A stretch of 64,000 bases of DNA from Jaapia argillacea MUCL 33604 (lineage: Eukaryota; Basidiomycota; Agaricomycetes; Jaapiales; Jaapiaceae): contig KL197713.1 in NCBI GenBank assembly GCA_000697665.1, forward strand, positions 1,266,593-1,330,592, read 5' to 3'. The position numbers and the translations under genes are program-made. Below, in pieces: positions 13,444 through 38,045 of the stretch; the stretch's first letter is position 1, and every line of letters begins with the position of its first letter. The notes under the pieces were generated by a model, which was not told the DNA's origin, made no database searches, and saw nothing but the letters and a program-made list of their open reading frames with translations.

Positions 13444-14716
13444 ATGCCAGCCGTTCGCAACCTCAATCCTGGGAATACCCCGAGGCAACCTCCCCAACTC
13501 ATCAAGAGACCGGAAGGACAGAATCGATTCAATGTGAGAAATGTCCTAGAGTTGTCAAAGCCCGAGTGGGAAGTTCTTTCTGTATGTATACTTCGCATCC
13601 ATATGATGCCCCTCTACTCATATCCGAGTCCATCGGGCCGAAGCACCGTATCCAAGAGCTAGCAAAGAAACACTTGGACCTGAGTGTGACATACCGCTAC
13701 CAGGACCCTGAGGCTCGCGATAAATTCTTGCAAGAGGTACGCCTCCCTCACATCATTCCTTCCATCCGTAGCACGATTGACGATATGAACCATTGTTGAC
13801 ACAACGAAATATCAATTCCCATTCGACCAGGCGATGAAGCAGGAGCCCATATTCTCTAAATTTGAGGATGGCTGGCCCCTCAGATATTATGTCAAGGATA
13901 GGTGGCTTGCGTACAAGGTGAATTACGCCAAAAAAGTAGCCAACCGTCGTTCCCGAGGTCCTCGAAGTAGGAGAGCCAAAGCAAATGTTAAGAATGGCGA
14001 CGTCGAAGACGAAGAGGAAGAGGAGCTCGAGTACGTCGACGAGGACAGTCAAGCAGGCGGTGTGAGTGGGGAGAACAGAGCATCTTCTCTCCCTGTCTCT
14101 CGAAGCTTCGACTTTCAAGAGGTAAGACGAGCCTCCGAGCTACCACATACCGTCATTTCTTGTACATTATTTGACCTCTATTTTCCAGAATCCAACCCTC
14201 GATTCCAGGGACCCTTCTACACGAACCCGAACAATGCTTCCTCGAAATGCTAAAACGCGATCCTTGCTTCGTCGAACTGAAAGGGACCACGATGACTCCC
14301 CCGATCCGCCCGAGTCGTCAGCTCGTCGACAGCCATCCCCTCTACCACCTCGTCCATCTCGAATGACTTTCCCAGCTCGCACCCCAGCATCATGCCCATT
14401 GGCACAATCACTCCCGACCTCCACCCGTACCAGTTCTACATCCCGCTCTCCAGCAAAGATTAATACGACAACCTCGTCCCCTCTCAACGAGTTCCTTTCT
14501 TCCTTCATCAAGCCTTCGCCCTCCCTCGCCAAAACTTTCGAGACCTATGGTATCAAAAGCTTTGAGGATTGGGATCAATTCGTCCACAAACCTAAGGCTG
14601 AGAGGGATGAAGTACTGATGAAGTTCGTATTTGTTGGGTTTATCAGTCTCTTTCAGTATCAGACGTTGATATTCGAGTTGGAGAAGTTGAGTGGGACTTG
14701 TTTGGTGCCTAGATAA
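13444..14716 (+). CDS. Unrecognised tandem-family protein, copy 1
   Basis: Four exons (13444-13581, 13644-13736, 13831-14121, 14189-14716) join in phase 0 to give 349 residues. The N-terminus is basic (MPAVRNLNPGNTPRQPPQL). Exon 2 encodes a 31-residue helical piece (HRIQELAKKHLDLS). Exon 3 begins with IFSKFEDGWPLRYY and WLAYK, followed by a basic stretch and then an acidic run (EDEEEEELEYVDED). Exon 4 is Ser/Pro-rich and closes with a helical domain of about 60 residues: TYGIKSFEDWDQF, KAERDEVLMKFVF, SLFQYQTL. I cannot assign any known domain. There is no signal peptide or membrane segment; the alternating basic and acidic low-complexity parts suggest a nuclear or scaffold-type protein, but that is inference. 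Confidence 0.75.
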
Positions 14717-15347
14717 ATGTCAGGCTATCGCTTTGGATTCTTGATGTAACACTAGTACATGAACGATATCGAAGTTTGTTGTTTGTTTGTAATTCCAGTT
14801 TACTATCCGTTGGCGGCCTTCAAGTTGCCGTATACTACTTGTACTCCCAATCCTCTCTGTTACTCGTCGATCCAAACAACGGGATATCGAAGGTTACGGT
14901 GCGGAAAATTGTGGAAATTTCTGAAGTGGTGAATGGACCACGTGACCGCGACGCGACGAACTTGCTTCAAAGTACAAGTGACAATTATGTCTGGTATCTG
15001 CCCTCTCCTACTTTTCGACTGTGTCTCCTCCCCTCGGCACTCACCCTCTTCGTCAGAGTGTCAGTCACACCAACATATTACCGTCGGTTGCGACCCACGA
15101 TTCGTGCAAGATCACACATTTGGCACCGCAAGGTTCACTCACTAGGTAATCGAAGCTATGGGCGCTTCAGTCCTAGTCAGGTGGTGTTCAATGCGACGTA
15201 TCTCGGCGTGCCATTCCCTTGTTGATGCCAAACAAGCTTCCAAATCCAACTTGAACAACCAAGCCCCTCTTGAACCATCGCCATCGCCTCGCCGCTCGTC
15301 TCTGTACCCTCACCTAACATTTCTTTTTCGATTGATCCTCGTTCGTC
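14717..15347. other. Spacer between family copies 1 and 2
   Basis: No gene is seen here. The spacer holds the duplicated upstream region of copy 2: CACGTG at 14939-14944 overlapping gaccgcgacgcgacga at 14944-14959, and a block near 15070-15115 that is repeated upstream of copy 3. Confidence 0.6.
14944..14959 (+). promoter_or_regulatory. Repeated gaccgcgacgcgacga element (copy 2)
   Basis: Identical over 16 bases to the element at 13141 and identical over 14 bases to that at 16757. It lies about 390 bases upstream of the copy 2 start and directly next to a CACGTG E-box. Conservation within otherwise diverged upstream DNA hints at a binding site, though shared descent alone may explain it. Confidence 0.35.
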
Positions 15348-16597
15348 ATGCCAGCCGTCCGCAACCTCAAACCTGCCAATTCCCGGAGACAACCTCCTCA
15401 ACTCATCAAGAAACCGAGAGGACAGAGTCACAGATTGATGGATGTTCTGGGGTTGTCAAAGCACGAGTGGAAAGTTCTTGCTGTATGTCTACTTCGCATC
15501 CATATGATGCCCTACTCATATACATGGGGTCAAAGCGCCGTATCCAAGAGGTGGCAAAGCGACACTTGAACTTGAATGTTACATACCCCCACCAGGACCC
15601 TGAGGCTCGAGATAAATTCTGGCAAGAGGTAAGTGACATCATCTATCATTCCTTCCATTCCCCATCGACATTATGAACCGCCGCTGACACGACCCAATAT
15701 CAATTCGCATCCAACCAGGCGATGGAGCAGGAGTCCATATTCTCTAAATTCGAGAATGGCTGGCCCCTCAAGTATTACGTATCGGACAGGTGGCTTGCAC
15801 AGAAGGTGTCCCGGGCCAAAAATGCACCAGGTCGTTCTTCCCGAGGATCTCGAACTACGAGAGCCGAGGTAAATGTTCGAGACGACGATGTTCAGGACAC
15901 AGAGCAAGAGGAGCTCGAGTACCTTGACGAAGGCAATCCGGAAGACGACGCTGAAAGGGAGAGGACAGCATCCCCTACATCCGCGACTCAAGATGTCGAG
16001 TTTCAAGAGGTAAGTTGAGCCTCTGATTTACCACATGCCATTGTTTCTCGTACATCTTCTGACCTCCTTTTCCAGACTTCAACCCTCAATTCCGGGGGCC
16101 CTTCTACGGGGATCCGACCATTTTTACCTCGAAAAGCTAAAATGCAATCCTTGCATCGTGGGACCGAGAGGGACCGCGATGTCTTCCCCGATCCACCCCA
16201 GTCGTCAGCTCGTCGGCAGTCATCCCCTCTACCACCTCCTCAATCTCGGATTTTCCCAGCTCGTGACCAAGCATCATACCCATCGGTACAATCAGTCTCG
16301 ACCCCCGGCCCTACCGGTTCTACATCCTGCTCAGCAAAAGCTAACGCTACAACCTCGTCCCCTCTCAACCAATTCCTTTCTTCCTTCATCGAGCCTTCGT
16401 CCTCCCTCGCCAAAACTTTCGAGATGTATGGTATCAAAAGTTTTGAGGATTGGGATCATTTTATCCACAAGTCTAAGGCTGAGAGGGATGAAATACTGAT
16501 GAAGTTTGTGTTCGTTGGGCTTATCAGTCTCTTTCAGTATCAGACGTTGATGGTCGAGTTGGAGAAGTTGAGTGAGACTTCTTGGGTGTCTGAGTAG
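15348..16597 (+). CDS. Unrecognised tandem-family protein, copy 2
   Basis: Four exons (15348-15482, 15536-15628, 15719-16009, 16076-16597) give 346 residues, with the second exon again exactly 93 bases and the third exactly 291 as in copy 1. Motifs keep their order: MPAVRNLKPANSRRQPPQL, RRIQEVAKRHLNLN, IFSKFENGWPLKYY, an acidic run (DTEQEELEYLDEG), and a C-terminal helical domain with MYGIKSFEDWDHF and SLFQYQTLMVELEKL. In this copy the N-terminal FNVxNVL motif seen in copies 1 and 3 has changed to HRLMDVL. No frame damage was found, so it appears functional. Function unknown. Confidence 0.75.
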
Positions 16598-17164
16598 ATG
16601 GGCTATCGCTGTGAATTCTTAATGTACCACGTGAGACAAGGATTTGATATCGAACGCGAGAAGAGTTGTGGATTTCGCAGAGATTGAGAAAAGGGGAGGG
16701 AATGCGAAGCAACCACACCGATTGAACGCCGATCACGTAAATTCCGCGTGGACCGTGACCGCGACGCGACGGAACACGTGACATATAGCATTCACTGGCT
16801 TTTCGACCTTGTCGTCTCCTCCCCTTAGGAGCTCAGCGGTGAGCGGTCGGCCCCTCTTCGTCAGTTACACCAACATCTTACCGTTGGTTACGACCCACGA
16901 TTCGCGCAGAACCATACATTCGTCACTCCACTGTTCACTTGCTAGAAGATTGTTTATCGAAGCCATGGGCGCTTCAAACCTAGTCAGGTGGTGCTCTACG
17001 CGAGGCGTCGAGGCGTCATTCTTTCGATGATTCCACAAACGTTTCCAAATTGGAACTTGAACCATCCAAGACCCTCCTGAACTGTCGCCATCATTTCCAA
17101 ACCCACGAGAGCTCATCTTTGTGCCCTAAACTAACATCCCTTTTACGATTCATCCTCGTTCACC
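16598..17164. other. Spacer between family copies 2 and 3
   Basis: No gene is seen here. It carries the third upstream element at 16757-16770 followed by CACGTG at 16775-16780, and the block near 16870-16920 that is also present upstream of copy 2. Confidence 0.6.
16757..16770 (+). promoter_or_regulatory. Repeated gaccgcgacgcgac element (copy 3)
   Basis: Matches 14 bases of the elements upstream of copies 1 and 2, about 395 bases before the copy 3 start, with a CACGTG E-box five bases downstream. Confidence 0.35.
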
Positions 17165-18426
17165 ATGCCAGCCATTCGCAACCTCAATTCCCGAAGGCAA
17201 CCACCTCAACTCATCAAGAGACCGAAAGGACAGAAGACATTCAATGTGATGAATGTTCTGGGGTTATCGCAGTCCGAGTGGACAGCTCTTTCTGTGTGTA
17301 TACTTGGCATCCATCTGATACCACCGACTCATGGCTATTGGGCCTAAGCACCGTGTCCAAGCGCTGGCAAAACGACATTTGAACTTGAATGTTACATACC
17401 CCCACCAGGATCCTGAGGCTCGCGATAGATTCTGGCAAGAGGTAAGTGACTTCGTCACTCTATCTATCATTCCTTCCATTCCCCATCGACATTATGAACT
17501 GTCGCTGACACGACCAAATATCAATTCGCATCCAACCAGGCGATGGAGGAGGAGCCCATATTCTCTAAATTCGAGAATGGCTGGCCCCTTAAGTATTATA
17601 TATCGGAGAGGTGGCTTTCACAATTGGTGTACCAGGCCGCGAATCCTCGCAGGAGACCTCGAACTCGGAGAGCCAAAGTAAATGTCAGAAATGATGATGT
17701 TGAGGACGAAGAGCAAGAGGAGCTCGAGTACCTTGACAAAGGCAACCAGGAAGACCACCTTGAGAGGGAGAGGACGGCATCTCCCAGTCCTCCCCCCGCG
17801 ACTCGACGTGTCCGCTTTCGAGAGGTGAGATGAGCCTCTACGCTACCACATATCATTATTCCTTGTCCTCCATGCCGACCGCTTTTCCCATCCAGACTCC
17901 AATCATCGATTCCGGGGGCTCTCCTTCAGGAACACGATTAACTCTCCCTCGAAACGCGAAAACTCGATCCCTGCTTCGTCACACCGAAGATGACCGCAAA
18001 GACTCCTCCGATCCACCCGAGTCGTCAATTCGCCGACAGCCATCCGCCACACCACTCAGTCAACCTCGAACGACGATCTCATCTCGCAACGTTGAATCGC
18101 GTCCATACCCACCACCAGTCTCTGCCCCCATCCCTACCAGCTCCCCATTCAACTATCATCCCACGAAAACCAAACCCCCAACTTCGTCCCGTCTCGACCG
18201 ATTCATTTCTTCTTTCATCAAACCCTCGGCTTCCCTCGTCAATGCTTTCGAGATGTACGGTCTCAAAAGCTCTGAGGATTGGGATCAATTCATCCACAAG
18301 CCTAAGGCTAAGAGGGACGAAGTACTGATGAAGTTTGTATTTGTTGGGCTGATCAGTCTCTTTCAGTATCAGTCGTTGATGGTCGAGTTGGAGAAATTGA
18401 GTGAGACTCCTTTCGTGTGTAAATAG
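17165..18426 (+). CDS. Unrecognised tandem-family protein, copy 3
   Basis: Four exons (17165-17293, 17349-17441, 17540-17824, 17896-18426) give 345 residues. The second exon is again 93 bases. Motifs in order: MPAIRNLNSRRQPPQL, FNVMNVLGLS, HRVQALAKRHLNLN, IFSKFENGWPLKYY, acidic DDVEDEEQEELEYLD, a Ser/Pro-rich linker (residues about 175-280), and the C-terminal domain MYGLKSSEDWDQF with SLFQYQSLMVELEKL. The first intron begins GTGTGT rather than GTATGT. Reading frames are intact. It is closer to copy 2 than to copy 1 in exon 2 (both read RHLNLNVTYPHQDPEARD). Confidence 0.75.
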
Positions 18427-18757
18427 ATGGGCTATCGCTGTGAATTCTTGATTTAGGACATGGTAGTCGAGTTTGAGAAATTGGCGCAGGATTGATACTC
18501 GATTGACACTCTGGGGGGGGAGGAGGCGGTCCAGTCTGTTTTCAATGTATACGTATATTTCTCTGTACCTCTGTACTTACACATCAACGACTTTCATACA
18601 GACCGCCACTCCACCATGAGGTTCACCGATTCGGAGAACTCGGCGACAGTTGGTACTTGGTGCAGGTCCCAGGATCACACAGCGAGTCTAGATATGATCG
18701 CCGCTCGAACCACAATCCACGACCACAGCCTCAAGGAACGCAATACCGCTTACCGTC
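18427..18757. other. Spacer before the F-box-like gene
   Basis: No gene is seen in these 330 bases. There is a run of G at 18513-18520 and presumed promoter sequence for the gene starting at 18758. Confidence 0.5.
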
Positions 18758-20400
18758 ATGCATCCATGCCTCACGATTCATGAAATTCTTGTTCCGACGT
18801 TCCGTGAGGTCCAAATAGTTGGTGGAGTGCGAGGCACGAACTGGAAAACCATGGCCTCCCTTGCGCGAACTTGTCGCTTATTCCACCTTCCCGCCATCAT
18901 GCAGATTTGGAGCACACAGCGTGGTTTCGTCCCACTTTTGCGTTGTATGCCCGACGACCTTTGGGAATGGGGATCGGGAGGTCGGTTAGTTGTGGTATGT
19001 TCAGACATTCTGATAGCTACTACATCCTCTGACTTTCCGTCGCCTAGCGTGCCAAGCGACAGTTGGTGCCACGGGATTGGGAGCGTTTTAACTACTACGC
19101 GGTCCATGTTCGACGACTGTGTTTTGGTCAGGAACATATGCCGCGGGTCCCACCAGGCCAATTCGCCGATTGCTTCACTTACGAAGCATTTATTTCATTC
19201 GTCGAACAAGCCCCCACCTTTCCACCGTTCTGCCAACTCCGCGAATTAATGTGGGATATCGATTTCGACTACCCTCAAATACTCGTCAAATTATTCAAAT
19301 TATTCAATATCGATTCATTGAAGAGTTTGGAAATCTCTTCATTCTGGGAAAACAACCTCGCTGCTGTGATTGACCTATTGGGAACATCGGATTCGATCAT
19401 GGAGACTCTATGCATCAAAATGCACGATTTCGATGATTTCAGCCCTTCTATCCACCCCCTTATATCACGTTCACTCGCCCAAGTCCCTTTCCCTCATCTG
19501 AAAGTCATTTTTGCGCCTTTCATTGTAGTGGACTGGGACGCCATCACGTCGTTGGCCTCCCTTCGAAGTATCCAAACCATCGACTTATCCTTGACACGCC
19601 ACGGCCCTCATAGCGATGTACCGATGGTATCGAAAACCGGATCCCCGTTGAACTTCGGGATGCTCTGTCTGAGAGCGGAGGGGATGTCCGAAGTTGCAGA
19701 TTTTTTGGGTTATCTGGCACATTTCGGGGCTGAGGAACTAGTTGTGTTCGCTTCCCGAGCCGAGAATGACGATGTTCAGATCACCTTGTTCCATGCGTTA
19801 GCTGGCCGCTGCTCGCCGACTTCCATAAGAACCCTCTCCATACAGATCTCCCAATTATCTCCACTCCCTGCCATCATCGATTACCACGCTTTCCACCTAC
19901 TGTTTCAGTTTCGCAATTTGGCATCAGTAACGCTCGAGTACGTTGCACGCTTCGACATCGACGATTCACTCTTGTCCGCAATGGCTGATGCCTGGCCCCA
20001 TCTCCGAGTCTTCAAGGTCTCGTATTATTCGAGGTTTTTCCCTTTGGGCGAGCCCAGAACTACACTTTCAGGCCTAATCCCCCTGGTCAATAAATGTCCC
20101 CAACTATCGACGCTAAAGCTACCTATGGACACCCCAACCACCCTCGCCGAGTGGATCAAATTTCGCAAAACCATCACTTCAAAGAGTCTTGCTACTACCG
20201 TGGAGTTCGATCCCATCACAGTCAGTAAAGCAGTGACTGTGGCGGCCATTATCACGGATATGTTCCCAAACATTTCAGATCCTCGCCCCTACGGAATGTT
20301 TACCTCTGATTTTTCCGCCGGGCCATGGGGGAAGACGAGACGATACATAAGTGCTATGGTTCAAATTCGGAAGGATTCGTGTGCGAGGATTGGGTCGTAA
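18758..20400 (+). CDS. F-box-like/LRR-type protein of basidiomycetes
   Basis: Two exons (18758-18994 and 19048-20400) give 529 residues. The N-terminus (LTIHEILVPTF, then SLARTCRLFHLPAIMQIW) has the layout of the degenerate F-box that starts many Agaricomycete proteins, where it would dock to SKP1 in an SCF ubiquitin ligase. Immediately after the intron comes RDWERFNYYAVHVRRLCF, a block that regularly follows the F-box in this fungal family. The rest has loosely repeated leucine-rich segments (LKSLEISSF, LRSIQTIDLSL, FRNLASVTLEY, CPQLSTLKLPM) fitting an LRR-like substrate-binding solenoid. The substrate is unknown. These genes are highly expanded in mushrooms. Confidence 0.75.
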
Positions 20401-21056
20401 CATCGATCGGCATCTACGACTTGCTCGATGTCTTTCGTTGATCTGACATTTGGTAAGTAAACTCTGAGTTATCCCGTTTCAATAGCACACGTACAACCTC
20501 ATCGCAGCGCTTACCAGGTTGCGGATGGTCCAATCCGCCACAGATTTGGTAGCTACGTTTTCCTATTGATCTGTTCCCTCGGCTTTCGCTCATCCGGGTT
20601 CTCAGGGAAGTTTCACCTGTATTTTACCATCTTGGACCTGAATTCATCTTTCCGACCCCCGTGACTGGCTAACCTAGGACCCATATCCCCATCGCCGTGT
20701 TCTCGCTGACGCGCCGGGGTCCTGCGGCTTCATTACTCCAACACCAATGCGGCGGTTGACGTCGCCATCAGAATCGAGAACTTCAGTTGTCCAATTCAAT
20801 GTTGTTGAGCTTATATGCTCCTTCCTTCCCTTGTGCGCACCTTCTACGTAAGCATGCTGGCATCGATTTGTCGTATACACTCAAGACCAAGGGGGAAGGT
20901 CAGGTGAACGCCACACGACGCGGCTCAGGCCCTAGGGACGTCTTGTTGAATCATCTGGCCACACCTTAATTGAATCAACAAGTTGAACACATCCATCTTC
21001 TTCCCTACCTTCGCTACCAACACCACCACCCGACCCCAAGCTGATCTCGGATTACA
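20401..21056. other. Intergenic region upstream of family copy 4
   Basis: I see no coding sequence with support. A CGACGCG core lies at 20916-20922, about 135 bases before the copy 4 start, resembling but not matching fully the element shared by copies 1-3. Confidence 0.5.
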
Positions 21057-22198
21057 ATGCCCGCTGCACGGACACCAAAGACCACTCCACGCTCCAAGCC
21101 GGCCCCAGGACATGCTACCCGACTTCAACAGTCCTCCAACGGCCGTGCGCCTCCTCTCATGCCCAAACCAAAGGCGACGTTCACCATGAGTAAGGTGATG
21201 GGGTTGGAATCGAAACCTTACAGAGCCATGACCGTAAGTTCTCCGGATGTCAACCAACTTACCAGGGCTTTGCAACGTTGCCATAGCATTCACCTTGTCT
21301 CGTTCTTTTAGACCCGTATTCGCGAGATTGGTGAGAAGTATCTCGACACCAGTAAAACGTGGGCCGACCAAACGCACCATGCTCGCGAAGTCTTCTTACG
21401 CGAAGTAAGGTTCACTGTACTCCGTACTGAGTCCTCAGCTGACAATTACTTTCCTCCCCTCGCCACAGGCCAGAAAGTCGAACCCGATCTTCGAAGAGTA
21501 CGTGGATGCATGGCCTGTCCAGTACTACACCGCGAACCTCTGGTTAGCCAAGAAACTATCCCGTGAAAAGCTAAGCTCGCAGGATCGGGCTGATGGCAAT
21601 TCTACGGATCCTGGCGAGGACCCTGACGAGGATGGGAATGAGGGGTTTTCTGAAGGCCAGGAGCGTGGTCACAAGGTGGAACAGAAGCCAGAATATCGCA
21701 AGTCCAGCTCTGCCTTGAATCCTCCTTCCAATCGCAATGGCGGTACATGTACCGCTTCCGGCTCTCAATCTGTGAGTAGTATTTTATATCATATTTTTTG
21801 TGATTACTGAGTCTCCTCCCTTTCAGACCATGTCATCGTCTTCAGGAGTAGTTCCAGCTTCTCAAGCTGCTCCGCCGCTTCGCCAAGTGTGTGGTTCTAA
21901 GCAAGATGCTCCCTCCCCGTCTTTGAAATCCTCCTCCACTCAATCCCCCCAAGCTTCATCGAATAGTCGCCAACGCCGTTGTCCGCATCTCCCAAAGTTC
22001 TTCACCGAGGATGAAGATGTTTACAATGCTTGTCGAAAATATGGTCTTGCCAGCCCTGCCGGGTGGGAGCTGTTTCTCCACAGCGATATATCGGAGCGGG
22101 AAGACATATTGGACCATTTTTTCATCACGAGGCAAGTCAGCCCAATCCAGTACAGGCGCATGGTCAAGGAGGTTTTGGCATTGTGCGATCAGCAGTGA
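21057..22198 (+). CDS. Unrecognised family protein, copy 4
   Basis: Four exons (21057-21233, 21312-21404, 21469-21771, 21827-22198) give 314 residues. The exon plan matches copies 1-3, with the 93-base second exon preserved (TRIREIGEKYLDTS...). Shared motifs: an N-terminal MPAARTPKTTPRS, LMPKPKATFTMSKVMGLES, IFEEYVDAWPVQYY with WLAKK, an acidic region (DPGEDPDEDGNEGF), and a C-terminal domain KYGLASPAGWELF, SEREDILDHFFITRQ, SPIQYRRMVKEVLAL. It differs from copies 1-3 in having a longer N-terminus and a shorter Ser/Pro linker that includes PPLRQVCG. With copy 5 it forms a second subgroup. Frames are intact; function unknown. Confidence 0.75.
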
Positions 22199-22621
22199 TT
22201 TGAAGGGCTGAGGTGTAGAGGTTCGGACGAAAACATGAATAGTTGTTGGGGATTTTGGGGTGTAATTCTGTTCATTTGGTTTTTTTGTTGATTTTTTTTA
22301 TGCTATCGTTGTTGTTCCAGAGAGGTTTTGAGCTCGAATCCAGTCTCGGATGTACTGACGTGGTCGTTGGGAGGGTCAATGAGCCTATCGGCGACCTGGT
22401 GTTGTTCTCTGTGTAATATTTGCGCTCTTGCCAGGTAGTACGTTCTATAGTCTTATGATAAAACAATATGCATCCTCACAGGCTAAGTTGATTTCTCTCT
22501 AGGACTCAGGGTGAAGTAAAGGGCCATCCGACATAGACATACCAACAAACGACAAGTCGACAACGTGGCAAAAGCTCTGACATTTCCGGTTTTGGAAGTC
22601 TCAACTTTTTCTTCCACTGGC
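22199..22621. other. Intergenic spacer before TIM54
   Basis: About 420 bases without a gene. A T-rich patch lies near 22275-22300. The right part should hold the TIM54 promoter and 5' leader. Confidence 0.5.
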
Positions 22622-24204
22622 ATGAGCACCGAAAATGCCTCAAACAACGCCCCACCTCCTCCTTCTCCTCCGAAATCTGGCGCTCGCATAGTACTCGAAC
22701 GAACAGGAGTACCCTCCTGGGTCTTTCAAAAACCCAAACTCCCCTCACGAAACTGGCTCATCTTCATCTCGGTCGTGTCCACCTTGACCGGATCCTACCT
22801 GTATGACCGCCAACAGTGTAAACGCATCCGTCGAGAATACGTTGACAAGGTCAAACACCTTGCTGACGAACCCTTGGGAGTGTTTGATTATGCAAGGAAG
22901 ATCACCGTATACGGGGGAAAGTGGCCTGGGGATGAGGATTATGAAAGAAGTATGAAGTATTTCAGGAAATACGTCAAGGTGAGCTCTAGCTGGCTACTGG
23001 CACTTGTATGTTGAGTTGACGCGTAGTTCTCTCACCCTCTCAGCCTATCTTAGTTGCCGCCGCTGTGGACTATGATATGGTGAAGGGTAGAAGGCTTGGG
23101 GACATCACGGATCGAATAGCCAAAGAAATCCAAGCTCGACGTCGCCTCGAAGCGGGGTTGGACACGCCTAGTAGCGCCATGCCCCTTCCCACAGATCAAT
23201 CCCTAGAAACCAAGAGAAGGAGGGAACTTGAAGGAGGGATTGTGATTGTTGGAAGACCGACGTTTAAAGAGTTCATGGCTGGGTTAAAGAAGGGTTGGTC
23301 TGAAGGTTTGGAAGTTGTTGACCCAGAAGAGAAGTTGGCGAGGGAGCTGGAGAGCGATGGGCATTTCGACGAAGAGGAGGAGCCTCTGGATACTCATGCG
23401 AGTATAGGATTCGTTGCCGGTGATGAGGAACCCATACCTACGCCATCTCGTCTCCCACCTTCGACGTCCATCTATTCACCCATCCAACTGCAGCCCCCCT
23501 CCTCACCATCCCAACGCCCCGGCTCTCCTGTAGACTCGTCATCCAACACTGCTCCTTCCGTTATACCCGAACTACCTCCCTTACTTCTCGTCCCCTTCGT
23601 CAACTATCTCGGATTTACCCAAATACCTTTAATGCTCTGGGAATTCTTCAACGAGAGGAAAAAGGTCCAGGCTGGGTCGGAAGCCGCCTACTCTCTCATC
23701 ATGAAACAAACTCGACCATTCACTGCATCCTCCTCCGCACCCTCCTCCTCCACTGAGTTTGTCTCAGAGGATGTCACACAACAAACCCCTTCGGAAAGAA
23801 AATTAACACCCTCCTCCGCCACAGTCAAGACCGACCTTGACTTCGACACAGACGCCGAATCATATTACAAATCCTCCCTTCGTAAAATCCCTGACGAGAT
23901 CACCAAAGCCCGAACTGAATACTATGCCTCCCTCCCCGCTAAGCTCAAGACTGCACGGGACTTATCGAGAGGACTCAGAGAACCGACAAAGGACGAGAAG
24001 AATTATCCGCCTCCAACCGAAGTGGAGTTGCGCGCTGAAAGGATGAAAAAGGAAGTCAAGTGGAGGAAGGATCTAGCTGGTTGGCTCACTGTCAAACCAG
24101 AGACGGACGTTGAGTGGGATGAAAGGTTCAGGAGTGCGCTGAAGGTTTTTACAGAGCCGACGGAAGGCAGCAGAGATGATGGGTTTGGAAGTTCGTCGAT
24201 CTAG
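22622..24204 (+). CDS. TIM54: Mitochondrial inner membrane translocase subunit Tim54
   Basis: Tim54 is part of the TIM22 complex, which inserts carrier proteins into the mitochondrial inner membrane. Two exons (22622-22978 and 23044-24204) give about 505 residues. The family signature is clear: WVFQKPKLPSRNWLIF, a single membrane segment (NWLIFISVVSTLTGSYLY, about residues 40-58), YDRQQCKRIRREYVDKV, then KITVYGGKWPGDEDYERS and, after the intron, PILVAAAVDYDMVKGRRLGD. The C-terminal region with a low-complexity Ser/Pro insert around residues 260-300 is expected in the intermembrane space. The start at 22622 is preferred over an in-frame ATG at 22565 because it gives the usual short, polar N-terminus before the membrane segment. 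Confidence 0.92.
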
Positions 24205-24330
24205 AAAGTTGCATAATCCTTGCTTTATTACACTCATCGTCTAATGGAATAATCGTACGCCTGCTCATGGATTGTCGATCACAGCGAGAATACAGGGAAG
24301 GCCATCGTAACTTTAGAAAAAAATGGTAGG

Positions 24331-27300: not shown

Positions 27301-30300
27301 CCGATCTGAGAACAAAGTCCACAGGGAGGGGCGAGATATATACCTGCTTTTCCCCACTTCGCAGTTTAAGATCTGAGACCCTGCACGATTGACAGTGAAT
27401 ACAGAGAAGTGACGAGGAAGAAACATTCGTACTCATCGCAGTTGGCTATCACCTCGAGCTAGCAACAGTACCAATAAGTCGTCAGTCGAAACGAGAAGAC
27501 AAAGAGGGTACACACAATTTCTCGGATACTGGCACGCTCCGGCAGTTGCAGAATCCCACTCATCTGAGAAGGAGTAAGCCAACGCAGTCATACAACATCC
27601 CCACACGTACCGTTCCTTGTCGAATGTAGAACTGCAACACCCACAGCTGAGTCTAGGAATACGAGGAAGCACGATATACGCACCTTTGCCATGATATCGC
27701 CGAATTCAGTGGACAAAAATTTCTTATCTCCATCTTCGCTCTGCGTAATAAGTTGATTCTCCTTCAGCTTTGCGATGCTCTGTATCACCATCTCATCAAT
27801 TCCGTTCTGCCAAGTCTGATCGGCGTCTTTCCCGTAATGCGTAGGATTCTTCTGAATTCGGACGAATAAGAATGAGTTGTGAAGCCATTGCTTGGCGGTG
27901 TCAACGTTAGTTATGGTGCCCAGACCAATTTCGGAGTTGATGTGCTCCGAAAGATTTTGGTGGAGGCAGCTCTCGAGTATAGTTTTGCCTTGAGTCAAAC
28001 CTTTGTACTTGGCTTCCAATTCGGATTCACAGAGAATGATTGCGATCCCCTCCTTGTCTACATAGGGTGAGAGCAAGGTCAACTTGACAACAGGTACTCA
28101 CCAAATTGAGGGCGACCCTAGAAGATTTTGATTGATGGAACGTCGGGAATGAGAGAGACCCTAGTAAGTACTCACAGCTCGACCGATCATCTGCATGATA
28201 TCCAAGTCCGAGTACTCCTGCATCATGTTATTCTGAAATATCTTCACTCCCTTGATGACAACAGTGTGTGCAGCTGGCGGAAGTAGCTCATTAGCGCAAA
28301 TAGTGGCACAGGCTAACGAAAAATACTCGCGTAGGTTGACTCCGACGGCAAGAGTCTATCACAAGATTTAATGGCCACGACAGATTCGAGTGGATAGAGA
28401 AACTCACCGATGTGGCAGACACACATCGAAGAATCTTCTTCATATACAAGTCTTCTGTAGTTCGCCTGTCATCAAGACTTAGCCCAGCGTGGTGCACACC
28501 GATTCCGAACGCAGCAAGTTCTGAGTGAGGTGACACGGCTTCAGCGATCGAGAATCGTTTCCTTCTCGGGACTCACTTTCCAATCGCTTATCATGAAACG
28601 AACATTGGAATCTGATCAAAGCCGTCAAAATAGGTATGTGGTACGGACAAAGCTAAGGCGCACTTCTTTGGTTGAGTCCACGGCAAAGGCTGCTTTCCTT
28701 CCATAGCCTTCTCGTATTCCTTCATTAGGTGCTCCGCCGTGGAAAGTACGCCTGGCAACGCCAAAGTCAGAATCAAGTCACGATATCATAAAATAAATTC
28801 GACGAGATGTACCGACCTTTCCTCGTGGCGATGAAAATGAGAATGGGCTTATTTGACGTATGTTGCTGCAATAAAGGGAACAACTTGTAGTCCAGACTCT
28901 TCGCAAACACGAAATCGTTTTGGTTCTTATTTCGAGGGATACCGTAGACGAAACGCGTAAGCTTGCAAGGACGAAACTCTTCACCAAACTGTGAATACAG
29001 GGCTTCAGGAATGTGTTAATGTGGGCAAGAGCAAGTATACCTCGAAAATATGTGCAGGCCCAGAACGATGGGCATCTTCGATCCAACTAGCGATATCCTG
29101 GATATTGGGCACTGTCGCCGACACGAGGACAAATCGAACTGCCTTCCCGCGCGTTTTCATACGCGAGATCACCACCTCGAGAGTGCTTCCACGAGACTCA
29201 TTTAGAATGTGAACCTACTCACGACGAAGAGGGATCAGAATTTTTTCGTCAGGTTAAAGGAGAAAAAGTTGAAGATGAACCGCGCACCTCGTCGACGAGG
29301 AAGAGCTGGATCTGGGAGAGAATTTGTCCGTGATCGCCCCTACAATGGCGAAAGAAAGAAAATTGAAAGCGATTACATCCAGATGATGATGCACATACCA
29401 ATTTCTCGTCAAGCTATCCCATTTCTCGCCCTGTTTACAACTCATCAAGCGCTGCGCGCACGTCCGATCCACAAACCACGTACAGTTGTAATGCTATGGG
29501 GTGAAGGTTAGTAACTCCACATTAATATGATGGTTGAGGACGAAGGCTTACATCACTGATGCGTTCTTCGCATCACCCCAAGCACTCTTACCAAAATGAA
29601 CGGTGTCTCCCGTGAGTTCGCAACCTGGCCGAAATAATATCCTGTCAGACGAACTCGAGACAACCCCTGCTGGACGCACATTTTACACCCAGTGCATCGA
29701 ATTTTGCAGACCAGTCACGGTATCGTTCGGAACACAACGCCTAGAGTGGTGCTAGCGATAAATCGATCGATCCCAAACGAAGATAGATGCTGCGATACCT
29801 TCGTCGGGGCCATGTAGATACACTTCACGCTCTGTTTGTTACTGGCAGCTTCCATTAGCACACGGATGATCGCAAGCTCAAACAAAACGGTCTTCCCGCT
29901 ACCCGTTGGGGCTAGCGATCACCTTCAGCTAATAAACAAAGCTACATATAGAAAATCCAGACTTACCGCTTATGACCTAAGCGGAATTAAGTCGAGGCAT
30001 ATAAATACCCAGTTCATTGGTGTTAAGACGACTTGCCATGTTCTCATCAGAGTGCACTACCTGAATTAAAAAGTGGTGAAATACGAAGTGGCGGCTCTGG
30101 GAGAAGGGGACAAAAATACCAGATCATAACATTTGGATTGAATCGCATTGAACACTCCAAACTTGAACATTGCTCGATAGATGTCGGCTACGATGGTAAC
30201 CCCAAGGTCGCGGTCAGCTGCCAAGGGCTGGAGGACTTAGACCGAGGATACGCACGTAGTTCAGAGACAGGTCTCAGGCGTATTCCATGTGTATTTTTGG

Positions 30301-30934
30301 GATGTGAACCCACCGAATAGGCCGGCCCCGCGTTTGTGTCGCTCTCACCAATAAGATAGGTCATTCTTGTGCCATGCCCAGTTGGAGCGTACCGACTGAT
30401 TGGCTGATGGGAGTTGGACAATAGAGGCTGGGTTAAATATGATTGGTCTGCTGGATGGTTAGGAAATGAAGCGCATATATCAAAGTATGAAACCCACTGT
30501 GATGCTGCTGTTGAGAGGGTCGAGGGAAAGGAGATTCTGATTGGTGTCCCAAAGAGTGGTCACGATGCAAAGGTTGATCAAAAGTGTGTTGATCTTCATC
30601 AAAATTCTTGTATATGGTATGATCTTCGGAGTGTCCAAACTGCTCGATCTCATCTTGATTGAGCTGAGGCTGATGGTGAAGCGTATACTGAGGGGGGTGG
30701 TAGGATGTGTATGGACCGGGAGGAGATGGAGATGAATTCTCTATTTATATTGAATGTGTTGAGTTGATCAAAGCCTAAACTGATGCGCATATACACACCG
30801 ATCTCGTCCGTAAAGTCACTGGCCAGTTCATCGTATCCAGCCATAACATGACCGGCTTCATGGCCGTAGTTCGAGCCATACTCATCAGCATCAAGTCCAC
30901 ATTCACGAGCCATTTCAGCAAAGTCGTCGTCCAT
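24331..30934 (-). CDS. MER3: MER3/HFM1-type meiotic DNA helicase
   Basis: A Ski2-like/Sec63-containing 3'-5' DNA helicase that promotes meiotic crossovers by extending D-loops in the ZMM pathway. The gene is split by many short introns. From the start at 30934 ([20 protein letters not shown]), motif [20 protein letters not shown] lies at about 29913-29860, preceded directly by an intron. The DEVH box is split by an intron (LVDE from about 29303, VHILNES from about 29220). The motif III-type VLVSATVPN follows. Motif [11 protein letters not shown], lies near 28195 with GRPQF in the next exon. Sec63-type helical exons follow from 28.1 to 26.5 kb. A Cys/His cluster ([11 protein letters not shown], then HLCCRDG across an intron near 25585) matches the C-terminal zinc finger of HFM1. 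The tail to 24331 is acidic and disordered. I did not resolve every exon join. Confidence 0.88.
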
Positions 30935-31151
30935 GGCGAGTCTGAGATGTGAAGGTCCAGGAAAGAGGTGAGGACAAGCCAGTTACGCGTCGGGGTCACG
31001 GGTACCCAAACCGAATCCACGTGCTCCTGCGTCACGCGACCTCACGAGACTCGGGAATATTGTGACAGTTGTGACTCACCGCGTTTCCGCCACAGACCAC
31101 CACCGTCTCTCGTGTGCTTGTTTTCTGCTCTCGACGTTCCTATCATCGACG
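30935..31151. promoter_or_regulatory. Divergent promoter of MER3 and CKS1
   Basis: Only 217 bases separate the two start codons. The spacer holds an exact ACGCGT at 30985-30990 and CACGCGAC near 31033. ACGCGT is the MBF-type cell-cycle box of yeasts, and both flanking genes are cell-cycle or meiosis genes, so joint control is plausible but unproven. Confidence 0.4.
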
Positions 31152-31649
31152 ATGGCTGAAGTCGCCTCTCAGAACCCAGGGAAGCAAATGGAGGATTACA
31201 TTGAAAAGTAAGCCAGGCTTTCCCCATGCCAGCGTTGATGTTGCTCACAAATTCTGTTCGATTCCAGGATTCACTACTCGGATCGGTACACAGACGACGA
31301 GTGGGAGTACAGACATGTCATCCTCCCGAAACCCCTCTTGAAGATGTTACCGAAACCATACTTTATGGACGATGATAGCGGCTGTCTTCGTCTCTTGACG
31401 GAAGCGGAGTGGAGGGGCATCGGCATTCAGCAGAGTCTCGGGTGGATTCATTATGAAGTCCATGGTACGTTCTACATGGCATTTCCCAATCTAGCACATC
31501 CCGGATGCCCGCTGATCTCGTCCCATGTAGCTCCCGAACCCCATGTGCTCCTCTTCCGTCGACCGAAGCACCTCGCTAATCAGCAGCAACAGTTGTTACT
31601 GCAACAACAGCACATGTTGAATGGGAAGAAGGACGGAAGGAGGAAATAG
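31152..31649 (+). CDS. CKS1: Cyclin-dependent kinase regulatory subunit Cks1
   Basis: A small adaptor that binds Cdk1 and phosphothreonines, promoting multisite phosphorylation. Three exons (31152-31207, 31268-31464, 31531-31649) give 123 residues. The family core is complete: [26 protein letters not shown]-type [16 protein letters not shown], the hinge [16 protein letters not shown] with the conserved H-x-PEPH strand-exchange region formed by joining exons 2 and 3. A Gln-rich, then basic, tail ([18 protein letters not shown]) extends beyond the core as in other fungal Cks1 proteins. It diverges from MER3 across a 217-base spacer. Confidence 0.95.
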
Positions 31650-32032
31650 ACCCAAACCCATCAAGTCGACCGTTTCCTCCACCCGATTATTAGATTCCGG
31701 CCTTTTGATCAATATCCCTGTCACCCCTTGTCAATTCCTTCATCTGGTTTATCAGTCGCTGTTTATTGTCCGTGGTCCCGTTCCTATCGCACTGTGTCAT
31801 CATATCTTGTTGTGCTGTTCGTTGTCGCATTTGTATCTGAACTGTGAATCTCCATTTCTTAGCTTGAAAACTAGTCAACTGTCGCCCATCCTGACAGTCC
31901 ATGCTCGCGGACGCAAAGAGGACGGCCAAAGTGATCCGCGCCTCTATCGTTGACAAATGAAAAGGGAGGTAGAGTTGTGATTAAGTACAGCTAGTACAGG
32001 ATAGATCGCCGACCAGCAACGACTAAAACCTA
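31650..32032. other. Convergent 3' flanks of CKS1 and the M16 protease gene
   Basis: About 380 bases between two gene ends. No coding sequence is supported; it should hold both 3' untranslated regions. Confidence 0.6.
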
Positions 32033-35000
32033 TCAAAACTTGGATAAGGGTAGATCGCCCCATTCTACAATTGGTTTCGGGTCTCCCGAAGGCTTCAACG
32101 ACGCCTTGAATGCTTTTACATCCTCAATATATGTCACCCCCTCACGCTTTTGCGTGCCCTCGTTGTCCTCGCCTTCCCCTTGTACCGGATGTTGCTCAAC
32201 CAGTTTTGGAATCTCCAAAAGCAGTTTCTTCATAGTCTCGGGGTCAGCACTCGGAGCCAGAAGCCCATGCCAGTGCTTGGCAAAATCGGTGATCAGCGGA
32301 TCCTCTTCGTCATCGGCGAACTCCTCTTCTCCCGACTCATGCTGGTCAACCGGAATGGTAGATTCCTTGACAAGAGTTTTGAAAGCGGTCCGAGCGGCCA
32401 AACCAACCTTCTTCGGTGGAGGCTTTTGTGAGCGTAGGTGAACTGAGAGTTTCGAGCGATTTGGCGACGAGGGGTGGATGTGAGAAAGGAAAATAGAGAG
32501 GACGTCATCCTTGGTGACACTTTGCAGTACCTCTGCATCCTTGGCACCTAGAATCGGAAACGACGTAAGTCCCTGACAAAGGAAATAGAAAATGATCATC
32601 TCACGTCTCAGAAAATCTAAGAACCCAGAGTCGATATGGCCCCAATATCTATTCGTCTCCTCTCCAATATTCTTCGGCTTCTCCGTCCACTTCCTCTCCA
32701 GTCCTTTCTTCTGCTCCTGGAATTCCTCGTCACTCATCTCTTCGATAGTCTTCTTCATTCCGCCCAAAAATGCTTCAACTCTCTCTTCCAGATAAGGTGG
32801 TGGTTTCTCGCTCTGAACAACCAACCGCAGCCCCTTCTCGCTCTCACCAGCCAAGTGCCACGCTGAACAAGAAACGATGTATCCGAGTTGCTCCTTGGTC
32901 CGTAGAACGTTGAAGGCAGGTTCGGACAGGATTTGGGCAAGGAGAGAGGTCACAACCCGAAAATGTTGGTCGAGGAGGGAACCCAGGTGGAGGTAATAAG
33001 TGAGCGAGGAGTTGGGCTCGTTGGGATTCGGAACGGTTGTAGCCCAGATGTAGTTGCAGGCTAAGGAAAAGGAGGTCAGACCATACCATCAGTCGGCAGC
33101 TGGCGACGAACGGACCTGGAGGGAGCAAGAGTGACCGATCAAGGACGTCTGACGGTGCAATCGGTTTGGGGGCCAAAATGTTCTCAGCCATTTCGACTAT
33201 CCCAATGGCTTCCTGGAAGTTGATAAATGTGATTAGCCATATTTTCGTCTGAAAGGGGGGGGGCTTTTATCTTACGCTCTTGTACATGTTACCCAACACC
33301 AACATCCGGATGTTAACAGTCGAAAGCAGTTGCTCTGCATGAGCCTGGATCTCTTCCGGGGTGACGGCTATACAAAGTAAATCCGTCAGTATGGAAGCGG
33401 TACCGAACTAGAAGTGAGGGCTCACCAGCTATTTCAGGCAGCTTCTCCTGGAGTGTCCACTGCTTTTCCGTGATGAGATAGCGACCATAATACTCGGAGA
33501 TGGTATAACTCTGGCCAAGGAAAAAGTTCTGCCACTGTCGCTTCACCTACAATTATTGCGTACGTGAGCTTTGCCATCCACGGTAAGGCAACACTAGGAA
33601 ACACGGACCTCCTCCTTCATGACGTTCAACCGCTCGGGATCAACCTTCAAGTTCTTGACACTCTCCAGGACGTGTCGTGCTAAAAGAGGGAGTTTGTCGT
33701 TATACCCACTCAATGCCACGAATACCCCCAAAGGATGGGAAGCAAAGTTGTACGAAAGGCCAGCAAGATCGGCGTCGTAGGAAAACTCAGTGAGGGAGTC
33801 AACGACCAAGTCCGTGAATAATCTAGAACGGACGTGAACAGGTATAAGGGGATAGCACATCAACGGGACATACCGTGACATAACGGAGGCTTTGGGTGAA
33901 GCGTTCGCAAATGGACTGGTGATTGGAATATTTAGTCGACAGCAGAGATGATGAACGCGTCTACGCACCTGCGAATTTCGATGATCACACGAGCTTTCGG
34001 CACCCAGAACTGATCGTCTTTCTTGTGCCATAAACTCGATAACGGGGTTTCGCGAATGAGATGAGGTCGTTGCAGTGGCTGACACAGATTTAAGATCCGA
34101 GAACTCCAAATGCGAGGAAAGAGTACTCACTTCCGCGACTTCGCGCTTGTCGACATCCAGGTTAGTCGGGATGAACTCGTTGGGGCCCGGTAAGAAAAGT
34201 TGGGGGATGTCATTTGGGCTCGAAGCCTGCAGTGTGGTCAGCTCGACGCGAATCGCGGAACATGTGCGTCACAATACACACCTCCTTGAAGAACTGATCA
34301 TCAAACCTCTCAACACGATACTTCGTCCCGTACCACGGCTCGCTTTCCCAACCCTTCTCCTTCTGTTCGGGAGCAGCAACTTTGTCATGTTCTTGCTCTC
34401 TAGCCATCAAGACCACTCGACCTTTCTCGACCTTCAGCCCCTCCAAAACCTCTCGAACCTCTCTCTCACCCTTACACATGACTTCGCCCTCACAGTCGAC
34501 AACATCCTTCTCGTCCCAAGGCCATGTCAATTGCGGTGCACTGATGACCAGCTCCCTCGGCACCGGCCAACTCATATGCTCTGCAAGCCAGACAGCATAA
34601 TCATCCGGTCGCTTCTTTTCCGAAAATCTAAACCTAGTCGACGCGATGGTACTGATTTCACTCTGGTTCCACGAGGGGAAAGGAGAGGAGCGAAGGAGAT
34701 TGAGATACTTGAACGTTGCGAGTGTGATTTCACGGTGGTTTTCTGGATTCAAATTGACATTGACGACAGACATTCGATACAAAAGAGAAAGTACTCACGG
34801 AAACCCTCAGTAGTCAGATAGGCTGTGATCTTGAACATTCCGAAGCCCCTCGCGAGATTCTGCGCGCCACTGCTCAAACCTGTGATCCATCCCTTATTCT
34901 TCAGATAGGAGTGAAGAGAGCCGGGGCCTTCATGGCCGGTGAAATGAGCAAGGAAGCTTGCAGGTTTGTGGCGCCAGTTCGGTGGTTGGTAGTCGAGGGG

Positions 35001-36468
35001 GAAGGAGATCTCAAGAGCGTGGAAATCCATGATTGTTTGAACCGAAACAAGAGTCTAAAGGGGATAACAATATTGCGGTGAGGGTGGAGAAGGTGCAAGT
35101 GAGACATGGTAAACATACACCCATCTCGTTCTGCCCGAATGGATGATCGTTGATCATTGGTAAGGCGTCCCTGCCACGGTTGAGAATGGGAGAAAACATC
35201 TCAGCCACCATATCCGACAGCTCGTCAACAGATTCTAATTAAAAGGTCCATCGTCAGTGAACAAACACTCACTACACATGGCAAGGCCGACAGACCTTTT
35301 CCGATGACGCAGAGACTCATCCGGCTGGCACAATATTCCCTCGTCCACCATTCCACCAACCTCCTCCTCGTCTCCCGTCCTACAGGCCCTCCATCTGCTT
35401 CAGTCTCGCTGGTCTGGGAGCTCTCACTCGGAGCAGGTGACGGTCCCCTCGAAGGTATCGGTGTCGGAGCCAAACTATTCCCCGTCGGAGTCTTGAACCC
35501 ATTAACTGACCTCTCCAACAAGCCCCTCTTCTTAAGCTCTTTCGCATGCTTACTCAAACTCTCCCTATTGCCGCTTCCGAACTTCTTCCATACATGGCCA
35601 TCCTTACTCAAATGTTTGTTCAGCTGGAAGATCCTCCACATATCCTGTTGGTGGTTCTTCTTGTGCTCCGAGTCAACAGCGTTGAGCTCCCTGGATGTAC
35701 ATGATGGAGCGAAGAGGGGGCAGTGGAAGAAGGCTGCGAAACGGGAGAGAGCTCCTGGAAGGGCCTGAGTGGCTACGTTGAAGTAGTAATTAGTCGCGCT
35801 TGTAGCAGTATACGCATTCGAAGAGCCATTGTTCTTGGAGAGATACTAGCAAGCGAAGATCACGCGATCAAAAAAAATTGTGAGCGAAGAGGGTGATTGA
35901 AGTCTACCTCAGAGTACTCGTTCTCGCGGGGATATGTCTCTGTTCCCTATATCATGGCATAAGATAAGAACAGACTGTCGACCATGAATTGGACCCACCA
36001 TGAACAATAGATGCTCGCAGAAGTGGGCAAGCCCCGGCATATCATCCTACTAGTCGTCAGTACATGCATTGCATCTCGTAAAGAACCATCCTTCCGACGT
36101 CACCCACAACGCCTAAAAGAACTAAGACGACTCACCGGGTCATAGAGATGACCCACTGCCACTTCCAAACTTGCCGCCGCCTTGTCAGCGGAGGCATCAT
36201 GAATGACAGTTGCCTGCAACCCATTCTCCAACTGCACAATCCTATACTCTCTATCGTCTTGCTGAGACTTTTCTATCGGTTTCATGAAGATAGAATACGG
36301 AGGAACTTTGTCCTTGGCGGGTGCCACACGTCGCCACTTGATGTTGTCTCTAGCCATAGCAAAATGAGCGCGATGATTGAGGGATGCTGACCGAGTAGCG
36401 AATCTGGTTAATAAGAGTCGAGCTTGAACAGAAGGAATGAAGAATGGTCGGGCGACGAGTGGGGGCAT
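32033..36468 (-). CDS. M16 metalloprotease, insulin-degrading-enzyme/Ste23 type
   Basis: A zinc peptidase of the insulysin family, which in yeast (Ste23/Axl1) trims a-factor and degrades short peptides. Many short introns interrupt it. The inverted zinc motif HFCEHLLFM (HxxEH) is found near 36030-36005, and the downstream zinc-ligand Glu block ELNAVDSEHKKN near 35690. NNGSSNAYTSATNYYF-type sequence follows the zinc motif as in insulysin. The middle half (RFDDQFFKE, WPVPRELVISAPQ) and the C-terminal half (SEPAFNVLRTKEQLGYIVSC, EEFQEQKKGLERKWTEKPKN) match the full four-domain layout of about 1,100 residues. From Met 36468 the N-terminus is Arg/Ser/Leu-rich (MPPLVARPFFIPSVQARLLL) and could be a mitochondrial presequence; Met 36357 (MARDNIKW) would give a cytosolic form. 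Confidence 0.92.
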
Positions 36469-36849
36469 TCAAATGTTCAAACTCTGATTACAACAGACAA
36501 TGGTGCGGACGCGGAATTTGTGGGATGGGCGTGTCCCAGGCTGCGGATTTGGCAGTGAAACACCCCAAATTGGTCTCACAGTCTGCGTCCGAACGTAACG
36601 AAAAGCATAGTTTATGAGAAGACTAGACAACGTACTACCGCAACAGTGGTTTATTACATAGAGAACTGACTGGTTTGGGGACCCTCCCAGTGACCACATG
36701 AGAAAATGCATGAAGTTGAACAGACTGGAAGGTTACATAAAAGTACAACGAGCTCTTGACCTCTCCGGCACAATAATGAACTTGAAAGCATGCGAAAGCA
36801 ACGATGTTCGAGTTACAGCCCAAGCCTCCACATCTCAGCCGCGTGATCC

Positions 36850-38045
36850 TCAAGTTGACCCATGGCATAACGCCGAAACTTCCTTGACCATACGGTTGTA
36901 CTGGATGACACTGACCTGCCTCGTGTAGAATAAATCCAGCAAAACATTGTCCCTCTCTGATTTCTCACTTTGAAGGAACAACTCCCACCCAGCGAGGGTG
37001 GCGAGACCATATTTTCTTAAAGCCTCGTAAACGCCTCGATCGGATCGGAAGAACTTTGGGAGATGTGCATCGCGGACGTCACTAGTCGACGAAGCTTGGG
37101 AAGGGTGGTGAGAGGTGGATTGAGAAGAAGAGGATGGACCAGCTCGGTTGGGTCCACACACTTGGCGAAGCGGTGCAGAACCTTCAGAGGGCAAAATTGC
37201 CGCAGATGACGAAATAGACTGGAACGAAAGAGGATCAATAAACCTCAACGCTGGGAAAACCGAAATAGAACCTACAGACTGAGAACTTGAATTGATATGA
37301 GCCCCACTATTGCGATTTGAAAGAACCTTCGCGGCGGGGTTGAGCTTGCGGTTGTCTGGTTCCAGTTTCACATGGCGAATCCCCTGGCCATCTCGGGGCT
37401 CCTCATCTTCATCATCGCCACCCTCATTCCCATTCTCATAACCCTTACCCCCATCCCCATCCTCACCCTCATCCTCATTACCCTCATCACCATCCCGGTT
37501 ACCCTCCTGGTGCGAAGCGTCGTCTTCCCGCGGCTTCCCCGCACGATAAATTTTCTTCATCAACCACAGATTCGCCGTGTAGTGTTGGATGGGCCATGCG
37601 TCCTGAAATTTTTCAAAAATCTGGTTTGACCTTCTTGCCTGTGAATGGGGAGAGTGATCGTTATTTAACCAACGTTGCTGGGCAGAGTATCGAGAAAGCT
37701 TACTTCGCGAATGTAGGCGTCACGAGCATTATGCGTTTGCGCCGACCACCTTTTGTCGGTGTCGAGATGTACTTCGCCAAGTTCACGAAGGCTTGCCTGA
37801 GAAGGCGGTACAGGGTGAGTTTTACCGACCTCGCAACGCTCTGGCAAGTCTGGAGATGGAGGACATACGAAAAGGTTTCTATAGCTCTTCATGTCCAACC
37901 CCATCTCGTTTCTGAGATTAAAGGTTCCTTTGGGTTTTGGAACGAGTGGAGTGGTGGGAGCTTTCCGGGGATGTTGCGTTTGGGCAGCATGTCCAAGGAC
38001 TGTTGTTGAGCGGAGAGTAGACTTGGGTGTTCGGTCAGCAGGCAT
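36850..38045 (-). CDS. Unrecognised family protein, copy 5
   Basis: The fifth member, on the opposite strand. Exon 1 runs from 38045 (MPADRTPKSTLRS, VPKPKGTFNLRNEMGLDM) to about 37875. The second exon is again 93 bases (ASLRELGEVHLDTD...AYIRE, about 37806-37714). The third starts ARRSNQIFEKFQDAWPIQHY with WLMKK and carries a long acidic Gly/Asp/Glu/Asn run. A 57-base in-frame intron after SSSQS is inferred from copy 4. The last exon has APLRQVCG and the C-terminal domain KYGLATLAGWELF, SERDNVLLDLFYTRQ, SVIQYNRMVKEVSAL. It is closest to copy 4. Frames are intact and function is unknown. Confidence 0.75.
37395..37500 (-). repeat. Imperfect GAx/GGx hexamer-like tract in family copy 5
   Basis: On the coding strand this tract is an irregular run of GAT, GAG, GGT and AAT codons giving an acidic Gly-rich segment (DEGNEDEGEDGDGGKGYENG). 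It replaces the shorter acidic run of the other copies and probably arose by slippage of a short repeat. Confidence 0.6.

What the first reader, a model, noticed from the sequence alone, without database searches (positions are those of the whole stretch)
13444..38045. Five-copy, locus-restricted gene family with no recognisable domain
Copies at 13444-14716, 15348-16597, 17165-18426, 21057-22198 (+) and 36850-38045 (-) all share four exons, the same motif order (basic MPAxR N-terminus; IFxxFxDxWPxxYY; acidic run; Ser/Pro linker; C-terminal YGxxS...W..F...QY domain) and intact frames. Several genes of conserved function sit between them, so the family has spread locally. I know no described family with this layout. 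Persistent open frames across diverged paralogues suggest selection.
Basis: partly seen in the sequence, partly recalled or inferred. Interest (0 to 1): 0.75.

Follow-up and report, generated by a model that had tools for sequence, protein, structure and literature searches.

The report
Unnamed two-domain mushroom gene family
Five related genes in a wood-rotting fungus are real, intact and kept by selection, and they belong to an unnamed two-domain gene family that is spread over the genome, with a relative of its first domain in another mushroom; what the proteins do is not known.

Summary
The window is Jaapia argillacea MUCL 33604. All five genes have four exons and three phase-0 introns; exon 2 is 93 nt in each. 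Deposited models for copies 1, 3 and 4 equal my spliced proteins; copy 2 is deposited truncated; copy 5 was not returned. Selection is purifying in the four pairs tested: overall dN/dS 0.38-0.70, domains 0.26-0.51, linker 0.67-0.92. More members lie elsewhere: a tandem pair about 170 kb from copy 1, one gene each on contigs 1, 39 and 26, and weaker matches. A Galerina marginata protein carries the N-terminal domain. Window copies have no Pfam match at E 0.001 (best 0.045). One distant paralogue shows a sub-threshold SAM resemblance at its C-terminus. My best guess, an inference, is an intracellular adaptor: two small helical domains joined by a disordered acidic, Ser/Pro-rich linker. It is undescribed as far as my searches reach, but an ordinary kind of thing. 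Interest is moderate to low.

The parts
13444..14716 (+). Copy 1, exons 13444-13581, 13644-13736, 13831-14121, 14189-14716; 349 aa; N-domain residues 29-111, C-domain residues 272-349
   Evidence: Splice model; identical to NCBI JAAARDRAFT_204849 (P0001); domain limits set by eye on the alignment
15348..16597 (+). Copy 2, exons 15348-15482, 15536-15628, 15719-16009, 16076-16597; 346 aa; the deposited model stops at 217 aa and lacks the C-domain
   Evidence: Splice model; truncated deposit P0004; C-domain dN/dS vs copy 1 is 0.50 from few sites, so the longer frame is favoured
17165..18426 (+). Copy 3, exons 17165-17293, 17349-17441, 17540-17824, 17896-18426; 345 aa
   Evidence: Splice model; identical to NCBI JAAARDRAFT_204851 (P0002)
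21057..22198 (+). Copy 4, exons 21057-21233, 21312-21404, 21469-21771, 21827-22198; 314 aa
   Evidence: Splice model; identical to NCBI JAAARDRAFT_191206 (P0003); AlphaFold model
36850..38045 (-). Copy 5, exons (- strand order) 37869-38045, 37704-37796, 37276-37638, 36850-37218; 333 aa; not returned by the three protein searches
   Evidence: Splice model; absent from the hits
13144..13155 (+). CGCGACGCGACG element, its end 289 bp before copy 1 start codon
   Evidence: 40 exact sites genome-wide against 2 for the reversed pattern
14947..14958 (+). CGCGACGCGACG element, its end 390 bp before copy 2 start codon
16760..16771 (+). CGCGACGCGACG element, its end 394 bp before copy 3 start codon

Best explanation
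The five genes are members of an unnamed family of about 285-350-residue proteins. Shown or predicted here: a basic N-terminal tail; an about 80-residue N-terminal domain, predicted all-helical, encoded in part by a 31-codon phase-0 exon and ending with (Y/F)x(D/N)xWP; a less constrained linker that is Ser/Pro-rich with an acidic run; and an about 70-residue C-terminal domain, predicted helical. The family grows by tandem duplication and is dispersed over several contigs. Inferred: the proteins are intracellular, probably nuclear, adaptors. The N-domain binds a partner or nucleic acid, the C-domain works like a SAM-type interaction or oligomerisation module, and the free linker holds the two at variable distance. 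Duplicates in the window diverge mainly in the linker.
For: Five intact four-exon models, three equal to deposited ones. Copy 4 N-domain predicted helical at block-mean pLDDT 83-96, linker below 50, C-domain helical at 56-76. Tail pI 11.7-12.0, linker S+P 24-31% in the window copies. dN/dS 0.26-0.51 in domains vs 0.67-0.92 in linker in the 4 window pairs compared. A profile of the five window N-domains alone finds the contig 5 pair (64.6 and 63.7 bits), the contig 39 gene P0005 (37.3), a Galerina protein (17.8) and a metagenome protein (13.6), with the best of 2000 shuffled controls at 7.3. Exon 2 is also 31 codons in the contig 5 pair and P0005 (counted by eye). SAM lead: P0005 C-terminus SAM_2 E 0.02 and SAM_1 E 0.03, EphB2 SAM E 0.08, SAM chains are the first three Foldseek rows though at E 1.3 or worse.
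Confidence: 0.45

Rival explanations
1. The N-domain is a sequence-specific DNA-binding domain and the family are transcription or chromatin regulators, with the acidic, Ser/Pro linker as activation region.
Confidence: 0.2
2. A rapidly turning-over conflict family (self/non-self recognition or defence) that expands by birth and death.
For: Tandem array, linker dN/dS 0.67-0.92 in the window, and a neighbourhood with a STAND/NB-ARC-TPR gene and a caspase-domain gene.
Against: The domains are under purifying, not diversifying, selection; no known effector or NLR domain in the members scanned; such neighbours are common in these genomes (own knowledge).
Confidence: 0.15
3. Debris: duplicated gene remnants or chance frames without function.
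For: No known domain in the window copies; no expression data were available.
Against: Intact frames in all 5, conserved splice sites and phase; dN/dS below 1 with bootstrap share at or above 1 at most 0.014 in the 4 window pairs compared; deposited gene models.
Confidence: 0.03

Closest known systems
GALMADRAFT_210576, hypothetical protein of Galerina marginata (P0009)
   Same: Shares the N-domain: LDxSxSYxKQD and YEDCWPV. Natural-only profile hhalign 93%, E 2.7e-7; hmmsearch 28.7 bits vs best shuffle 9.2.
   Different: 179 aa, ends soon after the N-domain; no C-domain seen. It has a 7-residue insert near the exon 2/exon 3 junction of the J. argillacea genes, possibly a retained intron.
SAM (sterile alpha motif) domain, Pfam PF07647 and PF00536
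   Same: One paralogue (P0005) matches the first half at E 0.02-0.03, and SAM chains lead its Foldseek list.
   Different: Below curated cut-offs; 0 of 5 window copies match SAM at E <= 10; the genome SAM_2 search does not list the family.
Snowball (snb1) family of Agaricomycetes, PMC10949477 (passages read)
   Same: Another mushroom family of unknown function, of the same 'dark proteome' class.
   Different: Seven transmembrane helices and DUF6533 by the paper's passages; not compared by sequence here.

Membership tests
Unnamed two-domain family defined here | Exon 2 of 31 codons between two phase-0 introns | tested here: met
   5 of 5 window copies; contig 5 pair and contig 39 gene as well, counted by eye
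Unnamed two-domain family defined here | N-domain with the WP motif found by profile | tested here: met
   Profile of the five window copies finds l40a, l40b, P0005, P0009 and P0008 above the best of 2000 shuffles
Unnamed two-domain family defined here | Homologous C-domain | tested here: inconclusive
   Copies 1-3 vs copies 4, 5 and the contig 1 copy: 97.4%, 1e-11. Those six vs contig 5 pair: 64%, 6e-5 (but copies 4, 5 and contig 1 alone vs pair only 0.7%). P0005: 5%, 0.008 at best. So met within the window, open for P0005
SAM domain (PF07647/PF00536) | Reaches Pfam curated score | tested here: not met
   P0005 15.5 of 20.5 and 15.1 of 23 bits; no SAM row for the other members scanned
SAM domain (PF07647/PF00536) | Five-helix SAM fold | tested here: inconclusive
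Homeodomain/Myb-like DNA-binding domains | Helix-turn-helix fold | tested here: inconclusive
Any DNA-binding family | Binds DNA | not testable with these tools
   Needs purified protein

The most novel reading that the evidence does not exclude
The N-terminal domain founds a new protein domain family across mushroom-forming fungi, with its own small helical fold, joined to a diverged SAM-like module, and the pair forms a fast-duplicating set of nuclear adaptors that no database has named.
Probability: 0.35. Interest if true: 0.5.

Novelty: new member of a known kind. Interest (0 to 1): 0.32.

Why it matters
It gives a usable definition (31-codon exon, WP motif, two helical ends) for a family that the Pfam and NCBIfam scans here did not name, extends it beyond one locus and at least to Galerina, and suggests that one deposited gene model (copy 2) lacks its C-domain and that copy 5 may be unannotated. 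If the domain proves widespread in Agaricomycetes it would annotate many hypothetical proteins. It does not by itself answer an open question.

Tried and rejected
Pfam, NCBIfam and PDB sequence searches gave no match that counts for the family. The search with the full alignment was capped at the 7994 candidates sharing most words, I think because of linker words, and returned only J. argillacea; masking the linker (213 candidates) again gave only J. argillacea. Foldseek gave no match at E <= 0.001 for either model; the lists for the copy 4 model show no SAM row, while those for P0005 do. Both models were whole proteins; the domains were not predicted alone. A search of the own genome with the Galerina protein found one place on contig 17 (E 2.3e-4) and none of the known family genes (5 candidates scored). 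Weak own-genome hits on C9 look, by my reading of the frames, like a dihydrouridine-synthase-like gene; hits on C50, C12 and C2 did not hold up. My first DNA pattern was set out of frame and its hits are meaningless; the corrected one gave 13 sites, of which 4 are family genes (copy 1, the contig 5 pair, contig 39) and 9 are not by eye. I considered that the CGCGACGCGACG element marks a family regulon: of the 5 further regions fetched I listed frames in 4, and none shows the family by eye; 32 of the 36 sites outside the family (40 in all) were not looked at. The trees resolve only the closest pairs and were not used.

Full report
What is there. The window lies in Jaapia argillacea MUCL 33604; the protein database returned copies 1, 3 and 4 of the finding, and a shortened copy 2, under that name. 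The window is contig 5, 1266593-1330592, of a 43.7 Mb assembly. I rebuilt all five genes: each has four exons, three introns in phase 0, and an intact frame. Exon 2 is 93 nt in all five. The models for copies 1, 3 and 4 equal the deposited proteins letter for letter; the deposited model of copy 2 stops at 217 residues, although the frame I give runs to 346 and its C-domain still looks constrained against copy 1 (dN/dS 0.50, from few changes: 8.5 synonymous and 17.5 non-synonymous). Copy 5 was not among the hits of the three protein searches.

Relations inside the window. Copies 1-3 form a tandem array with spacing of about 1.8-1.9 kb; copies 2 and 3 share upstream sequence too. Copies 4 and 5 are each other's closest (43-46% by blastp) and lie in opposite orientation about 14.7 kb apart. 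Between the two groups blastp gives E from 1e-17 to 2e-14 in the N-domain and 4e-6 to 2e-9 in the C-domain, for a subject set of 9 proteins.

Selection. Nei-Gojobori dN/dS over whole genes is 0.70, 0.58 and 0.63 for the three pairs among copies 1-3 and 0.38 for copies 4-5. For the two domains together it is 0.51, 0.50, 0.51 and 0.26; for the linker 0.92, 0.67, 0.79 and 0.68. Bootstrap shares at or above 1 are at most 0.014 for whole genes and 0.015 for domains; for the linker they are 0.36, 0.04, 0.14 and 0.05. The pair elsewhere on contig 5 gives 0.41 overall, 0.38 in the domains and 0.42 in the linker, so there the linker is not freer. The six pairs between the groups were not computed. The method is simple counting, not a codon model.

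Not locus-restricted. Searches of the own genome found a sixth gene on contig 1 near 63.2-63.9 kb, its 5' part hidden by a run of N; a tandem pair on contig 5 at about 1106.5-1109.8 kb, some 170 kb from copy 1 (P0006 and P0007); and a gene on contig 39 (P0005). The pair and the contig 39 gene have the same 31-codon exon 2, counted by eye. P0005 then finds a contig 26 gene (C-terminal half E 2.9e-19; N pieces E 1e-4 and 0.02), and C-terminal-half matches on contig 53 (1e-18), three places on contig 8 (2e-8, 1e-5, 5e-4) and contig 59 (0.02), with weak N pieces at fitting spacing on contigs 53 (0.16) and 8 (0.7). These last matches include linker sequence and their DNA was not read. I count 10 members with good support (five in the window, one on contig 1, two more on contig 5, one each on contigs 39 and 26) and a few possible ones.

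Beyond Jaapia. With natural words the protein search saw only J. argillacea. I recalled, without a source, that mushroom proteins carry YE(D/N)xWPV motifs, and added three made-up probe rows to two natural ones. That search returned, besides P0003 and P0005, a 179-residue Galerina marginata protein (E 4.5e-9) and a 95-residue metagenome protein (E 2.7e-10), 4 hits among 930 candidates. Because the probes could be circular, I re-tested with natural J. argillacea sequences only: hhalign 93%, E 2.7e-7 for Galerina and 54%, 1e-4 for the metagenome protein; hmmsearch with the five window copies alone gives 17.8 and 13.6 bits, with all eight J. argillacea N-domains 28.7 and 19.7, against a best of 7.3 and 9.2 among 2000 shuffles; blastp of copy 1 against Galerina gives 2.5e-6, but copies 4 and 5 only 0.16 and 0.24. 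Against this, a search of the own genome with the Galerina protein listed only a place on contig 17 and none of the known genes. I take Galerina as a true relative of the N-domain; the metagenome piece is likely but short. How wide the family is cannot be told with these tools, as no fungal genome collection is held.

Known or not. 0 of 5 window proteins has a Pfam match at E <= 0.001; three sub-threshold rows (DUF4746 0.045, Ribonuclease 0.11, DUF5359 0.24) were seen in one member each. P0003, P0001, P0005, P0006 and P0007 have no match above a cut-off in Pfam or NCBIfam. Five paper searches were answered (15 of 39, 0, 1, 8 of 60 and 3 papers listed), and no title or abstract start in those listings names such a family. 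I read only passages of one paper, PMC10949477 on Snowball, a different, membrane-spanning family that illustrates how common such unannotated mushroom families are. So the family seems undescribed as far as these searches reach, but as a kind it is ordinary.

Noticed in passing
window 13144-13155, 14947-14958, 16760-16771; G000 contig 5 1106255-1106266: CGCGACGCGACG occurs upstream of copies 1-3 and of one gene of the paralogous pair; 40 exact sites genome-wide against 2 for the reversed pattern, including one just before a gene that I read as F-box-like. Looks like a general promoter element with repeated CGCGA.
   Followed up: partly
window 15641-15817 and 17462-17638: Intron 2 of copies 2 and 3 differs at only 7.8% of sites while their introns 1 and 3 differ at 26% and 36%, which suggests local gene conversion between copies 2 and 3.
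   Followed up: no
L040 (contig 5 pair; P0006, P0007 linker): Both proteins carry DIIDLT in the linker, which resembles a SUMO-interacting motif (recalled, not tested).
   Followed up: no
window 48853-51156 and 7700-8461: A STAND/NB-ARC-type ATPase with TPR repeats and a caspase-domain (C14) gene lie in the same window.
   Followed up: no
L039 3800-4697 (contig 1, about 62.3-63.2 kb): The 5' part of the contig 1 family member lies in a run of N; the readable part has W-V in place of W-P in the motif.
   Followed up: no
window 18698-20400: A 450-aa open frame (19048-20400) between copies 3 and 4, and the overlapping frame before it, have no Pfam match at E <= 0.001; by eye it resembles the large F-box-like families of mushrooms (own impression).
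   Followed up: no
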